From assembly GCF_900143015.1 (NCBI RefSeq), contig NZ_FSRT01000001.1:1116001-1180000 (forward strand): a stretch of DNA of 64,000 nt. Reading direction: 5' to 3'. The position numbers were made by a program, and so were the translations under genes. This document shows positions 29,526-33,280 of this stretch, piece after piece. The DNA comes from Fibrobacter sp. UWB11. GTDB lineage: Bacteria; Fibrobacterota; Fibrobacteria; Fibrobacterales; Fibrobacteraceae. Within the stretch, counting starts at the first letter, position 1, and the number at the start of each line of letters is the position of its first letter. The notes under the pieces are model-generated. The model was not told where the DNA came from. It made no database searches and was given only the letters and a program-made list of their open reading frames with translations.

Positions 29526-29852
29526 TTAGACTAGACCGTCAAAATACAAATGGTCGAAAAGCGTAGTGCCTGTGCATCTGTATTTTGCAGTCTTGTTTGC
29601 GTTTGCGCTGAATTCGAATACTTCATCGGCTTCCAAGTCTCTTCCTGCGACGACATCGACATGCAGATAAACGTGAGCACCCTCAGGAATGTTTGTCTGG
29701 GTCAAGACAACGGTACGTTCTTCCGTTACGCAAATATCGTGTCCATCTGCGTACGTACCTTTTTGTCCTGTAACAGGATGCTGCCATTTGACTTCAATTC
29801 GAGCAACGTAGGCTCCTTTGTTAAGAAGTGCGATTGATTTGATCTGATCCAT
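29526..29852 (-). CDS. Small all-beta cytosolic protein, unknown
   Basis: 108 residues with no signal peptide. The start has AAGGAGAT upstream. The sequence is a series of beta strands: 'SIALLNKGAYVARIEVKW', 'ERTVVLTQTNIPEGA', 'VYLHVDVVAGRD', 'KTAKYRCTGTT'. This recalls small eukaryotic-like beta-sandwich stress or pore-former-like proteins, but I cannot name a family with confidence. It follows the tandem cystatin-like gene by 46 bases on the same strand and shares its terminator, so the two are probably made together. Confidence 0.7.
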   Translation of the reverse strand: MDQIKSIALLNKGAYVARIEVKWQHPVTGQKGTYADGHDICVTEERTVVLTQTNIPEGAHVYLHVDVVAGRDLEADEVFEFSANANKTAKYRCTGTTLFDHLYFDGLV

Positions 29853-29898: not shown

Positions 29899-30441
29899 TT
29901 AAAGAATGTTTGCAAAATTGATGGATCTGCATTTGGCGTTAACAGTAACCAAAGAAATCTTTGCGCTTGCATACGGAGTAACCGGTTTTACTTCTGCGGC
30001 AAGGAAATGGTTAATGCCAGAAACGACTTGACCTCCGAGGTAGGCGAAAGGCTTGACATCGGAACCTACAAATCCGCTGATGACCTTGTTGAAATCTACC
30101 ATAACTTCTTCCGGAATATCGGTAGTTGGGTCTACAACGATGCCGCCAGGAATCTCACGACCTTCGAGTATACGCTCGATTGTTGTAATCGTGACTTTGT
30201 CTTCCCAAACGTTGAAAATGACGAGAACGACATTCTTGTCTCCGGCTGCACTTGCAATGATTTGTTCTGCGAGAACGGCATGATTCATGCCTTTAACAAC
30301 CTGCTGACCAAGATAAGCGAATACTTTATAAGATGCGCCAATGAGTTTGTTTAACTGTTCTTCTGCTGCACTAACTTCTTCTGGCCAATCTTTAACGAGA
30401 ACATTGATATTCCATCCGCCTGCAATTACTCGTTCCATCAT
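29899..30441 (-). CDS. Tandem cystatin/stefin-like protein (cysteine-protease inhibitor candidate)
   Basis: 180 residues, no signal peptide. Two homologous halves: each starts with a Gly-Gly (residues 8-9 and 99-100), has a helix (WPEEVSAAEEQLNKLIG; IPEEVMVDFNKVISG), then 'FAYLGQQVVKGMNH' or 'FAYLGGQVVSGINH', then strands. QVVxG at 47-51 and 138-142 is the first hairpin loop of cystatins (MEROPS I25), which together with the N-terminal Gly wedges into papain-like active sites. The second hairpin Trp appears as 'FNVWED' in half 1 and is missing in half 2. Possible role: blocking host, predator or own papain-like proteases. The start has AAGGAG upstream. A 32-bp element shared with neighbouring genes lies at 30504-30535. 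Confidence 0.75.
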   Translation of the reverse strand: MMERVIAGGWNINVLVKDWPEEVSAAEEQLNKLIGASYKVFAYLGQQVVKGMNHAVLAEQIIASAAGDKNVVLVIFNVWEDKVTITTIERILEGREIPGGIVVDPTTDIPEEVMVDFNKVISGFVGSDVKPFAYLGGQVVSGINHFLAAEVKPVTPYASAKISLVTVNAKCRSINFANIL

Positions 30442-30503: not shown

Positions 30504-30535
30504 TTATTAAATGCAAGAATGTGTATTTTTACTCA
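30504..30535 (-). promoter_or_regulatory. Shared 32-bp element, copy A (upstream of cystatin-like operon)
   Basis: Ungapped alignment with copies at 31026-31057 and 31185-31216; matches copy C at 27 of 32 positions and copy B at 23. On the minus strand it begins TGAGTAAAA and ends TTAATAA. The start codon of the cystatin-like gene is about 63 bases downstream, so it may be a promoter or activator site. Confidence 0.6.
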
Positions 30536-30604: not shown

Positions 30605-30637
30605 AAAAAAACACCGTTTGATATTTTATCAAACGGT
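30605..30637 (-). terminator. Strong terminator of the two-helix membrane protein gene
   Basis: Perfect stem ACCGTTTGATA / TATCAAACGGT with a three-base loop; on the minus strand a run of seven T residues follows. Confidence 0.9.
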
Positions 30638-30672: not shown

Positions 30673-30993
30673 TTACAAATCAGATTGTTTTTTATTTGAG
30701 TTTTTCTTTTTTGAATGCTTGACTAAAAGCGTTATCACAACTCCCAATACAAATCCTAGAACTGCGGCAAGTATGAATCCGCCGGTTTCTGTAGAAAGAA
30801 TAAATGCTCCGTACACGGATGGCGTTGCATAAACCTTCGAACCAGAAAATACGCTTATTACAGCAAAAAGAGCGACTAAAGTAAGGCATGCTGTTGTCGT
30901 CAGGATCTTTGTAGTTCTTCTTTCTCGTTTTTGTCGGATTATTCCAGCTCGTCGCCTTATTTCTTTAAGAGCGTCTTCTTTTGTGTATTTCAA
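30673..30993 (-). CDS. Small membrane protein with basic cytosolic N-terminus and two TM helices
   Basis: 106 residues from a TTG start with AAGGAGGAAAC directly upstream. Residues 1-26 are highly charged (KEIRRRAGIIRQKRERRTTK); TM1 ~28-48 (LTTTACLTLVALFAVISVF); an extracytoplasmic loop of ~20 residues (GSKVYATPSVYGAFILSTETG); TM2 ~72-92 (GFILAAVLGFVLGVVITLLV); then a basic Lys/Asn tail. Size and topology would suit a small anti-sigma or accessory factor for the divergent ECF sigma factor, but there is no recognised anti-sigma motif (no HxxxCxxC). Preceded by copy B of the 32-bp element. Confidence 0.65.
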   Translation of the reverse strand: MKYTKEDALKEIRRRAGIIRQKRERRTTKILTTTACLTLVALFAVISVFSGSKVYATPSVYGAFILSTETGGFILAAVLGFVLGVVITLLVKHSKKKNSNKKQSDL

Positions 30994-31025
30994 GTTTCCT
31001 CCTTAATGGCTTATATTTTATATGC

Positions 31026-31057
31026 TACTTAATTGCATAATTTAGTTTTTTTACTCA
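31026..31057 (-). promoter_or_regulatory. Shared 32-bp element, copy B (upstream of two-TM gene)
   Basis: Same element as copies A and C, in the same orientation, 33 bases upstream of the TTG start at 30993. The TTTTACTCA end (plus strand) is identical in all three copies. Confidence 0.6.
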
Positions 31058-31096
31058 ATATTTTATTGTAAATAAAAATAAGCAAGTAACGTAAAA

Positions 31097-31131
31097 CGCC
31101 CAGGACGATAGGATCCTGAGCGCTTTTTTTT
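31097..31131. terminator. Hairpin with flanking T runs between divergent units
   Basis: CGCcCAGGA / TCCTGaGCG stem followed by eight T residues on the plus strand, and by GTTTTACG on the minus. No plus-strand gene ends here; it would instead stop a short minus-strand transcript started at copy C, or shield the two-TM gene. Confidence 0.6.
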
Positions 31132-31184
31132 GAGGTGTAGTTTAAACTCTAAAACACCACGAGAGAAACTCCTGGTTTTACTAC
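31132..31184 (-). ncRNA. Possible short untranslated transcript between copy C and the hairpin
   Basis: Minus-strand transcription from copy C (31185-31216) would give an RNA of roughly 70-90 bases ending at the 31097-31131 hairpin. The stretch holds an inverted repeat (GTGT ... AGTTTAAACT ... ACAC) but no open frame longer than a few codons. Purely inferred from element position; it could simply be a leader of the two-TM gene. Confidence 0.25.
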
Positions 31185-31216
31185 TTATTAATTGTAGGAA
31201 TGTTTAATTTTACTCA
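31185..31216 (-). promoter_or_regulatory. Shared 32-bp element, copy C (upstream region of ECF sigma operon)
   Basis: Third copy, same minus-strand orientation, 97 bases before the sigma-factor start on the other strand. It may drive a short minus transcript, or serve as operator for the plus-strand operon. Confidence 0.55.
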
Positions 31217-31312
31217 CTACTTTGTTTTAAAATTTTGTTTACAATATTGATGAGTTTATTTAAATAATTACATTTTGTTACAAAAATGTTGTCATAATGG
31301 GAAAGGTGTGTG

Positions 31313-31894
31313 ATGCCCGATGTTGATGGACAATTGTTTATCCGTTTTTTAAACGACGATGCTCAAGATGCTCTTGAAGTCCTTTTTGAAAAGTATAGGG
31401 ATGGTTTAATCTTGTTTTTGTATGGATATGTTCAAAATGCAGATGTTGCCGAAGAATTGATGATGGACACTTTTGCAATTTTGGCTTCTGGTACGGCTCG
31501 CTATAAAGAAAATAAGGATGCGTCGTTTAAAACTTGGCTCTTTGCGGTTGCTAAAAATCAAGCGTTGCTTTATTTACGGAAACGTAAGGTCAAATTTGTT
31601 TCTTCTGCGAACGATTTTTTGAACAATGTAGAGGCAGATGCTAGTTTTCATCCAGTGGGGATGCTATTGAAAAATGAGACGGATTCACAAGTGTATCGAG
31701 CGATGAAGTCCATTGATGCTGATTATAGGAATGCGTTATTCCTCTTGTATTTCGAGAATATGAAGCCGGAACAGATTAGCCGAATAATAAAGAAAAGCAT
31801 AAAGCAGACGTACAATATTCTAGCGCGAGGAAAAGAGGCTTTGCGTATTGCGTACGAACGGATGAATAATTCGCATTTGGCGGGAGAAGGGTGA
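31313..31894 (+). CDS. ECF-family RNA polymerase sigma factor
   Basis: 193 residues from ATG 31313 with AAAGGTG upstream. Region 2: 'VLFEKYRDGLILFLYGYV', 'ADVAEELMMDTFAILA', 'FKTWLFAVAKNQALLYLRKRK' (residues ~22-100). Region 4: 'SIDADYRNALFLLYFENMK', 'ISRIIKKSIKQTYNILARGKE' (residues ~127-182). There is no region 3 or 1.1, as expected for ECF sigmas. Followed with almost no gap by a multi-TM protein and a PrsW-like protease, so an envelope signal is the likely input. The target promoter is unknown; the local 32-bp elements are candidates. Confidence 0.88.
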   Translation: MPDVDGQLFIRFLNDDAQDALEVLFEKYRDGLILFLYGYVQNADVAEELMMDTFAILASGTARYKENKDASFKTWLFAVAKNQALLYLRKRKVKFVSSANDFLNNVEADASFHPVGMLLKNETDSQVYRAMKSIDADYRNALFLLYFENMKPEQISRIIKKSIKQTYNILARGKEALRIAYERMNNSHLAGEG

Positions 31895-31896
31895 AA

Positions 31897-32670
31897 ATGA
31901 GCGGATTGACTCTGCTTGATGTCATCATGACCATTTTTCAATCTGTTATTTTAGTTGTTGTTATTGTTAGAACTGTCCAATTGATGAAGAGCGGGAAAAA
32001 TGAATTTCTTCCGTTCTTTTTTCTGTTGGCGATGGTTAGTTTTCTTTTGAGTAATTTGTACTGGATCGCGTATGATGTTTTAAAACCAGATACGCGCATG
32101 CCGATTGCGTCTAATGAAATAGGGGAGTGCGCCATGATTCTACTTTTGTCGGCGGGGCTCGAATCTTTGCTGAAAGACAAGAAAAGGATTCTTGGTGAAA
32201 TCGTTTTCGCATTTCTGTTTATTGGTGCAAATATTGCGTTATGGATTGCGTGGTCTGGGGAATGGCTTCAGGATATTTTATTCGGAATTCCCTATATCTA
32301 TTTCTTATGGGTTTTGATTCGTGGAATGCGGAGTAGGGGCGTATTGGCTCGAAAGGAACTGCTGCTCGCTGCTGTGATGAGTATTTCTGTTTTGATTTTG
32401 CAAATCCCGTTGCTATGTGAGAAAGGGTTTTTGTACGAATTTGTAAATGTGGTGTGTTTTGTGGTGATGTTTACTTTGATGGTTTGGCTTGGGGTTAAGA
32501 GCTTTCGATGCAAGGATTTTTTTGTTACTTCGACATTTTTTTTGTGGACGGAACTTGCAATGTTTTTGAGCCCCTTGCCTTATTACAATTTGGCTTTTGG
32601 AGTGAATATAATTGTATTGCCAATAATGTTTACGTCGATGAAAAGGGAACTAATGGATGATTTATGCTGA
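31897..32670 (+). CDS. Multi-pass membrane protein, putative sensor or anti-sigma partner
   Basis: About 257 residues from ATG 31897 (GGAGAAGGG upstream; a GTG at 31891 overlapping the sigma stop is the alternative). Seven to eight TM helices are visible (for example IFQSVILVVVIVRTVQL, FLPFFFLLAMVSFLLSNLYW, VFAFLFIGANIALWIAW, LLLAAVMSISVLILQIPLL, VVCFVVMFTLMVWLG). Loops are short and charged. No recognised family. Its position between the ECF sigma gene and a PrsW-like protease, with overlaps or near-overlaps on both sides, suggests that it senses or passes on the signal, or holds the sigma factor at the membrane. Confidence 0.7.
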   Translation: MSGLTLLDVIMTIFQSVILVVVIVRTVQLMKSGKNEFLPFFFLLAMVSFLLSNLYWIAYDVLKPDTRMPIASNEIGECAMILLLSAGLESLLKDKKRILGEIVFAFLFIGANIALWIAWSGEWLQDILFGIPYIYFLWVLIRGMRSRGVLARKELLLAAVMSISVLILQIPLLCEKGFLYEFVNVVCFVVMFTLMVWLGVKSFRCKDFFVTSTFFLWTELAMFLSPLPYYNLAFGVNIIVLPIMFTSMKRELMDDLC

Positions 32671-33280
32671 AAATGTTCTGATTTGCATTGCTGTGCCGCT
32701 TGCGATTACTTTGCTTTTCACTAAGGGGAGTGCACGACGTTTGACGGCCTCGTTCCTTGTGGGGATGATCGTTTGCATTGTTTCGGCGTATATTTCTGGG
32801 TATGTTCAAGTGTTATCAGATTTCTCGGCTGAAGATACCTCTATTTTTCTTTCTCCGATGATAGAGGAATGCATGAAGCTTTTATCGATGCTGTTTTGCG
32901 TTTATGTGTCTAATCCGTCAGATGATGAAATCCAGTTGTGTGCTGTTGGTATCGGTGCAGGTTTTGCAACGTTTGAGAATTGCTGCTTTATTTTGTCATC
33001 GGGTGCTCCGCAACTGGCGAATGTGCTCGTGCGCGGTGCTGCTGTCGGTGTGATGCATATCGTGACTTTGGTGGCGCTAGCTAAGGGAATGCAACTGCTG
33101 AAAACTTACAAGGCTTTTTCGCTTGCAGGGATTGCTGGTGTGTTGTCGCTTTCCGTGACGGTCCATGGGCTCTATAATTTGCTGGTTTCTAAGCCTGGAG
33201 TGTCATCGTACATCGGGTACGTGATGCCGATGATCTGCGCGATAATGCTTTATATGATTAACGGAAAGACGAATCAATAA
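32657..33280 (+). CDS. PrsW-like intramembrane protease
   Basis: 207 residues, about six to seven TM helices. PrsW-family motifs are all visible: 'IEECMKLL' (EExxK, Glu70, Glu71, Lys74), 'GFATFENCCF' (Glu107, Asn108), 'VMHIVT' (His134) and 'VHGLYNLL' (His170, Asn174). In Bacillus subtilis PrsW starts cleavage of the anti-sigma factor RsiW and so releases ECF SigW; members are also related to CAAX proteases (PF13367). The gene overlaps the preceding membrane protein by 14 bases and shares an operon with the ECF sigma factor, which supports the same kind of role here. A terminator follows at 33281-33314. Confidence 0.82.
   Translation: MIYAENVLICIAVPLAITLLFTKGSARRLTASFLVGMIVCIVSAYISGYVQVLSDFSAEDTSIFLSPMIEECMKLLSMLFCVYVSNPSDDEIQLCAVGIGAGFATFENCCFILSSGAPQLANVLVRGAAVGVMHIVTLVALAKGMQLLKTYKAFSLAGIAGVLSLSVTVHGLYNLLVSKPGVSSYIGYVMPMICAIMLYMINGKTNQ

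What the first reader, a model, noticed from the sequence alone, without database searches (positions are those of the whole stretch)
30673..33280. ECF sigma factor, multi-TM protein and PrsW-like protease operon with a divergent two-TM protein
The three + strand genes are overlapping or nearly so, which implies coupled production. PrsW is known to trigger anti-sigma cleavage for an ECF sigma in Bacillus, but a PrsW gene co-operonic with its own ECF sigma plus an unclassified 7-8 TM protein, and no recognisable zinc-binding anti-sigma, is unusual. The small divergent protein with a basic cytosolic tail and one short external loop could be the cleaved anti-sigma or a target.
Basis: partly seen in the sequence, partly recalled or inferred. 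Interest (0 to 1): 0.8.

Follow-up and report, generated by a model that had tools for sequence, protein, structure and literature searches.

The report
Transferred sigma-factor and membrane-protease signalling cassette
This is a compact bacterial signalling unit, apparently acquired from gut Clostridia, in which a gene-switching sigma factor travels with its own membrane protease, a sensor-like membrane protein, a small membrane protein and its own promoter sequence; the same unit with the same promoter recurs in two bacterial phyla and looks undescribed.

Summary
The four genes are real and form a conserved unit. In Fibrobacter the sigma factor and the divergent 2-TM protein occur in exactly the same 12 of 61 genomes; across 168 Fibrobacterota the module is confined to 16 genomes of one genus. 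The same set (ECF sigma, multi-TM protein, PrsW, 2-TM proteins) occurs in 27 Clostridia loci. A tree nests Fibrobacter inside them, implying one horizontal transfer.

I found the probable promoter: TGAGTAAAAA-N~9-GCAATTAA, with ECF-like spacing. It occurs three times in the whole 3.76-Mb genome, all at this locus: before the 2-TM gene, a tandem-cystatin gene, and a short terminator-ended unit. A matrix trained only on Fibrobacter sites finds the equivalent site before 2-TM genes in Clostridia (top 12 hits in 292 kb).

Ten Clostridia loci encode a second 2-TM paralogue directly behind sigma, the usual anti-sigma position. Best reading: the 2-TM proteins are zinc-finger-less anti-sigma factors, removed by the dedicated PrsW under control of the multi-TM protein; the divergent copy is both sigma target and feedback inhibitor. 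Shown: conservation, promoter, catalytic residues. Inferred: sigma binding, cleavage, signal.

The parts
30673..30993 (-). Divergent 106-aa 2-TM protein ('small B'); candidate feedback anti-sigma and predicted sigma target
   Evidence: ORF; conserved with sigma in the same 12 of 61 genomes; alignment
31310..31894 (+). ECF sigma factor (likely start ATG 31313)
   Evidence: Sigma70_r2 and Sigma70_r4_2 above cut-offs; NCBIfam sigma70-ECF superfamily 64.8 bits against cut-off 42.9
31891..32670 (+). Unclassified multi-TM protein, about nine predicted helices; candidate sensor or gatekeeper
   Evidence: No family (weak only); model pLDDT 74; conserved LWIxWxGEWxQDIxxG segment
32657..33280 (+). PrsW-family intramembrane protease
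   Evidence: PF13367 52.1 bits; E70, E71, K74, E107, N108, H134, H170 in 39/39 homologues
31029..31057 (-). Predicted sigma promoter of the 2-TM gene: TGAGTAAAAAAACTAAATTATGCAATTAA
   Evidence: One of three genome-wide pattern matches; conserved in relatives
31188..31216 (-). Predicted sigma promoter of a short terminator-ended unit: TGAGTAAAATTAAACATTCCTACAATTAA
31090..31123 (-). Terminator hairpin ending the short unit (candidate RNA of about 90 nt), preceded by conserved ACACCTC
   Evidence: Covarying hairpin in six Fibrobacter genomes
30613..30637 (-). Terminator-like hairpin behind the 2-TM gene
30507..30535 (-). Predicted sigma promoter of the cystatin-fold gene: TGAGTAAAAATACACATTCTTGCATTTAA
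29899..30441 (-). 180-aa tandem cystatin-fold protein, likely output gene
   Evidence: Model pLDDT 87 with two beta-alpha-beta4 units; Foldseek fetuin-B prob 0.99, cystatin C prob 0.99 but E above 0.001
29526..29852 (-). 108-aa protein downstream of the cystatin-fold gene, possibly co-transcribed
   Evidence: ORF; no family at threshold

Best explanation
A self-contained ECF sigma signalling cassette, acquired once by Fibrobacter, most likely from Clostridia. The sigma factor is held at the membrane by 2-TM proteins that lack a zinc finger. PrsW, encoded in the same operon and regulated by the multi-TM protein acting as sensor or gatekeeper, makes the first cut in the 2-TM protein; a housekeeping site-2 protease finishes the job and sigma is released. 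Sigma then reads TGAGTAAAAA-N~9-GCAATTAA promoters and transcribes the 2-TM gene (negative feedback) and adjacent output genes: here a tandem cystatin, elsewhere large secreted proteins, lipases or proteases. Shown by sequence: the gene set and its conservation, the promoter motif and its placement, the PrsW catalytic residues, the presence of a site-2 protease gene. Inferred: that sigma reads the motif, that the 2-TM protein binds sigma, that PrsW cuts it, that the multi-TM protein senses, and the direction of transfer.
For: Strict co-occurrence in the same 12 of 61 genomes. Same gene set in 27 Clostridia loci. Full 2-TM paralogue between sigma and multi-TM genes in 10 Clostridia loci. Promoter motif three times genome-wide, all at this locus, and found before the 2-TM gene in Clostridia with a matrix trained on Fibrobacter only (regex scan 12 sites against 1 in control). 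PrsW residues E70, E71, K74, E107, N108, H134, H170 invariant in 39 homologues. Site-2 protease in the genome. PrsW and RasP degrade anti-sigma RsiW in B. subtilis (PMC3498285). Tree and one-genus distribution for the transfer.
Against: The cytosolic part of the 2-TM protein is only about 28 residues plus a short tail, short for a known anti-sigma domain. An orphan 2-TM gene without a neighbouring sigma exists (L057). No interaction or cleavage evidence. In Fibrobacter small A is lost or reduced to a 1-TM mini-ORF, so the system must work without it. The multi-TM protein could be the sigma partner. The tree is midpoint-rooted.
Confidence: 0.55

Rival explanations
1. The multi-TM protein is the anti-sigma (or membrane tether) and the PrsW substrate or partner; the 2-TM proteins are only sigma-dependent envelope outputs.
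For: The multi-TM gene is the one always translationally close to sigma and PrsW, whereas small A is lost or reduced in Fibrobacter. Some members give faint matches to 7TM-DISM signalling and SpoIIGA models.
Against: It offers no sizeable soluble domain in the model; 2-TM paralogues share their N-terminal basic stretch and outer loop whether behind sigma or separate, which suggests a shared sigma- or PrsW-related role rather than an output role.
Confidence: 0.25
2. PrsW here does not act on an anti-sigma; it processes the 2-TM protein or the secreted output proteins (maturation or export), and sigma merely controls expression of the substrates.
For: In Clostridia the sigma-driven 2-TM gene is followed by large secreted proteins and a trypsin-like lipoprotein. 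PrsW domains have been proposed to process toxins (PMC3482391).
Against: Output proteins differ completely between species while PrsW and the 2-TM protein stay constant; several outputs in Fibrobacter have no membrane segment or obvious signal.
Confidence: 0.15
3. The repeated motif is a binding site for another regulator and not the promoter of this sigma factor.
For: A further TTTACAA element often lies 7-9 nt upstream in Fibrobacter, which could be part of a larger operator. No transcription data.
Against: Two blocks with fixed ECF-like spacing, fixed orientation and a conserved distance to the start codon, tracking with this sigma family across two phyla. In module-less genomes the looser pattern occurs only at about the rate of the reversed control.
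Confidence: 0.1

Closest known systems
Bacillus subtilis SigW-RsiW-PrsW-RasP pathway
   Same: ECF sigma factor, PrsW-family site-1 protease with its conserved residues, a site-2 protease available in the genome (PMC3498285).
   Different: Here PrsW is in the sigma operon; no RsiW-type zinc-finger single-TM anti-sigma; an extra multi-TM protein; promoter TGAGTAAAAA/GCAATTAA instead of the SigW consensus (the latter from general knowledge).
Bacillus subtilis SigY-YxlC/YxlD and SigM-YhdL/YhdK (small non-zinc membrane anti-sigma factors)
   Same: Small membrane proteins encoded beside the ECF sigma gene act as negative regulators (own knowledge, not tested here).
   Different: No PrsW or multi-TM partner in those operons to my knowledge; no sequence relation was tested.
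E. coli SigE-RseA-DegS-RseP with SigE-dependent small RNAs
   Same: Regulated proteolysis logic; a candidate sigma-driven small RNA with a terminator in six Fibrobacter genomes; trypsin-like protease gene near the Clostridia modules.
   Different: Different site-1 protease family and anti-sigma; sigma-driven RNA is only a candidate.
PrsW-linked polymorphic toxin systems (PMC3482391)
   Same: PrsW-family domain in a locus with variable cargo genes.
   Different: There PrsW is fused N-terminally to toxin domains; here it is a stand-alone 207-aa protein in a sigma operon.

Membership tests
ECF sigma factor | sigma region 2 and region 4 domains, no region 3 | tested here: met
   Sigma70_r2 and Sigma70_r4_2 above cut-off, nothing between; NCBIfam sigma70-ECF superfamily above cut-off
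ECF sigma factor | promoter with two short blocks at 16-17 nt spacing, tracking with the sigma gene | tested here: met
   that this sigma reads it is inferred
ECF sigma factor | assignment to a published ECF group | not testable with these tools
   classification paper not held
PrsW family (PF13367) | family score above the curated cut-off | tested here: met
   52.1 bits against 23.5
PrsW family (PF13367) | conserved EExxK, FEN, H and H..YN residues | tested here: met
   E70, E71, K74, E107, N108, H134, H170, Y173, N174 in 39/39 and F106 in 38/39
PrsW equivalog of Bacillus (NF033739) | score above the equivalog cut-off | tested here: not met
   34.2 bits against 225: a family member, not the Bacillus orthologue
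Zinc-binding anti-sigma (ZAS, RsiW type) | HxxxCxxC motif | tested here: not met
   absent from the 2-TM and multi-TM proteins
Zinc-binding anti-sigma (ZAS, RsiW type) | single TM segment with an extracytoplasmic domain | tested here: not met
   two hydrophobic segments with a loop of about 25 residues
Regulated intramembrane proteolysis pathway | site-2 (M50) protease available | tested here: met
   PF02163 219.6 bits, G000:C2:309624-310898; its involvement is untested
Regulated intramembrane proteolysis pathway | anti-sigma binds sigma and is cut by the site-1 protease | not testable with these tools
   needs bench work; no complex prediction available here
Cystatin fold (180-aa neighbour) | beta-alpha-beta4 topology and QxVxG loop | tested here: met
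   two such units in the model; QVVxG in both halves of the window protein; best recognisable fold matches are cystatins, E 0.003-0.13

The most novel reading that the evidence does not exclude
A horizontally mobile sigma-protease-promoter cassette with exchangeable output genes, which in Fibrobacter controls proteins likely to act on eukaryotes (cystatin-fold inhibitors, patatin and PI-PLC lipases, a papain-like protease), for example in a response to rumen protozoa, and which defines an undescribed kind of anti-sigma: a roughly 100-aa 2-TM protein that is its sigma factor's own first target and is cut by a dedicated PrsW.
Probability: 0.15. Interest if true: 0.82.

Novelty: new variant of a known kind. 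Interest (0 to 1): 0.62.

Why it matters
ECF sigma factors are a main route by which bacteria sense their surface, and PrsW is known in detail in essentially one pathway. A cassette that carries sigma, its protease, candidate inhibitor and sensor, and whose promoter can be read from sequence in two phyla, makes the whole pathway testable in a heterologous host. It suggests that promoter specificity can travel with a sigma factor between phyla, and it gives a testable function to two unnamed protein families in little-studied gut bacteria.

Tried and rejected
Naming the multi-TM protein by family or fold: no Pfam, NCBIfam or PDB-sequence match; Foldseek gave only weak 7-TM receptor-like hits with E of 0.1 or more. 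Naming the 2-TM protein: only sub-threshold matches. Rfam: nothing at threshold. Consensus sigma-70 promoter scan of the region: no more hits than shuffles; by eye a TTTACA-N17-TAAATA lies before sigma but it is weak and I do not rely on it. Motif hits beyond the locus are at about the control rate and those inspected are mostly inside coding sequence, except one in G004 just before a cystatin-family gene pair. Literature: no paper in the library holds PrsW together with Lachnospiraceae or with rumen; the main ECF classification paper is not held, so an ECF group could not be assigned and novelty is only relative to this library.

Full report
WHAT IS THERE. The window lies in a 3.76-Mb genome (G000, contig C1:1116001-1180000). 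Public records of the same loci in its genus neighbours are named Fibrobacter. The + strand genes overlap or abut: sigma/multi-TM by 4 nt if GTG 31891 is used (2 nt apart if ATG 31897 is used), multi-TM/PrsW by 14 nt. Pfam confirms sigma regions 2 and 4 and PrsW above cut-offs; the multi-TM and 2-TM proteins match no family. PrsW is unique in the genome.

CONSERVATION IN FIBROBACTER. In 61 genomes of the genus, close homologues of sigma and of the 2-TM protein occur in exactly the same 12 genomes. PrsW was found in 9 of 61 relatives in a first search, all of them among these 12, and tblastn of the retrieved loci finds all four genes together in all 12. A profile of the multi-TM protein over 168 Fibrobacterota genomes finds 16 positives, all in this one genus. 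In the window clade the module sits beside nifJ (L055, L060, L064, L148, L149). Module-less genomes G071 and G014 have nifJ and glgC flanking a gap without it; in G071 the gap holds a patatin gene. A decayed copy (sigma intact, multi-TM and PrsW absent, 2-TM truncated) exists in L058.

THE SAME UNIT IN CLOSTRIDIA. A scan of 84,980 species genomes with the multi-TM alignment found 39 loci: 12 Fibrobacter and 27 Clostridia (Lachnospiraceae, Eubacterium, Oscillospiraceae, unplaced), mostly gut metagenome bins of ruminants. The scan relies on two exact peptide patterns, so the true range is probably wider. Profiles built from the Fibrobacter proteins find sigma in 27/27, PrsW in 26/27 and a separate 2-TM gene ('small B') in 25/27 Clostridia loci, nearly always in the order sigma, multi-TM, PrsW, small B. 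In 10 loci a full second 2-TM paralogue ('small A') lies between sigma and the multi-TM gene; in others only a 1-TM piece is seen there, and four Fibrobacter loci (L073, L074, L079, L082) keep such a mini-ORF. A tree of concatenated sigma, multi-TM and PrsW places Fibrobacter as one clade (support 1.0) beside L084/L085 (0.987) and then L086/L087, inside Clostridia under midpoint rooting. With the one-genus distribution this argues for one transfer into Fibrobacter. The direction is inference.

THE PROMOTER. Aligned intergenic regions showed a conserved element reading toward the 2-TM gene: TGAGTAA-N13/14-(A/G)(C/T)N(A/T)TTAA, which can be read as a 7-mer, 16-17 nt and ATTAA, the usual ECF spacing. 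In the whole window genome the pattern occurs three times, all at this locus (30507-30535, 31029-31057, 31188-31216, all minus strand). The reversed control gives 5 hits genome-wide, so about 0.001 hits are expected in 711 bp. Relatives carry it before the 2-TM gene, before the next gene, and in several before sigma itself. Across 24 genomes the hits of a looser pattern elsewhere resemble the control rate and scatter. Independent test: a matrix trained only on 30 Fibrobacter sites, scanned over 292 kb of Clostridia loci, gives as its top 12 hits sites upstream of a 2-TM gene, and 17 of the 20 hits scoring above the best control (15.2) are so placed. A regex scan gives 12 sites, all before the 2-TM gene, control 1. 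I regard the promoter assignment as the firmest functional inference here. That this sigma reads it is not shown directly.

OUTPUT GENES. In the window a terminator-like hairpin (30613-30637) separates the 2-TM gene from a 180-aa gene with its own motif. That protein is predicted with confidence (pLDDT 87) to be two cystatin domains, with fetuin-B and cystatin C as the best recognisable fold matches (none below E 0.001) and QVVxG in both halves. Homologues also lie at the locus in L058, L064 and L149 and, in G004, about 950 kb away behind a motif-like site. Homologues in module-less G012, G015, G077 and G079 show no motif; one in module-bearing G076 also has none at this stringency. Elsewhere the motif or the 2-TM gene precedes a patatin (L056), a PI-PLC (L149), a DUF6603 giant (L072), TSP3-repeat and papain-type proteins (L075). 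In Clostridia the 2-TM gene is often followed by a trypsin-like lipoprotein and/or giant secreted proteins with collagen, Calx-beta, InlB or LRR domains. The cassette is constant; the output varies.

A POSSIBLE SMALL RNA. In six Fibrobacter genomes a motif copy is followed by ACACCTC and a terminator, before the motif of the 2-TM gene. The hairpin has double-sided compensatory changes at four pairs. In the window it would be a transcript of about 90 nt (31090-31187, minus strand).

MECHANISM. PrsW retains its conserved motif residues in 38-39 of 39 homologues, and an M50 site-2 protease exists in the genome. In B. subtilis PrsW and RasP destroy RsiW (PMC3498285). The simplest reading is therefore a regulated-proteolysis pathway in which the 2-TM proteins replace RsiW. 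For this: position of small A behind sigma, a shared basic N-terminal stretch and a shared YGxxxL-TM2 segment in both paralogues, predicted sigma-driven expression of small B (feedback), strict co-occurrence. Against: a very short cytosolic part; the multi-TM protein could be the partner. The multi-TM family has an invariant LWIxWxGEWxQDIxxG segment, and some members give faint hits to 7TM-DISM and SpoIIGA models, so sensor or gatekeeper is a guess only.

VERDICT. It is a new variant of the known ECF-PrsW theme, not a new category. The ECF classification paper was not available, so prior grouping of this sigma factor cannot be excluded.

Noticed in passing
window 29899-30441 (-) and 29526-29852 (-): A 180-aa protein with tandem cystatin fold (rare in bacteria as far as I know), followed by a 108-aa unclassified protein; related cystatin-family genes occur in 9 of 61 Fibrobacter genomes.
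   Followed up: yes
window 31090-31216 (-): Candidate sigma-driven short RNA: motif, conserved ACACCTC (Shine-Dalgarno-complementary) and a covarying terminator in six Fibrobacter genomes.
   Followed up: partly
L057 5663-8675 (G006 contig 78): Orphan 2-TM gene with the motif, followed by a 331-aa protein with KYGYPCG repeats and a radical SAM/SPASM gene: looks like a modified-peptide locus.
   Followed up: partly
L056, L064, L073, L079 between the sigma and multi-TM genes: A 1-TM mini-ORF similar to the second TM segment of the 2-TM protein, apparently a remnant of small A.
   Followed up: partly
L058 (G019 contig 41): Decayed module: sigma intact, multi-TM and PrsW missing, 2-TM gene truncated; a second complete module is on contig 48 of the same genome.
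   Followed up: partly
L144 4812-5837 (G071): A patatin-like gene occupies the nifJ-glgC gap in a genome without the module, resembling the patatin behind the module in G006.
   Followed up: partly
L149 6166-7415 (G149): Motif copy followed by a PI-PLC-like gene, next to a cystatin-family gene at the module.
   Followed up: partly
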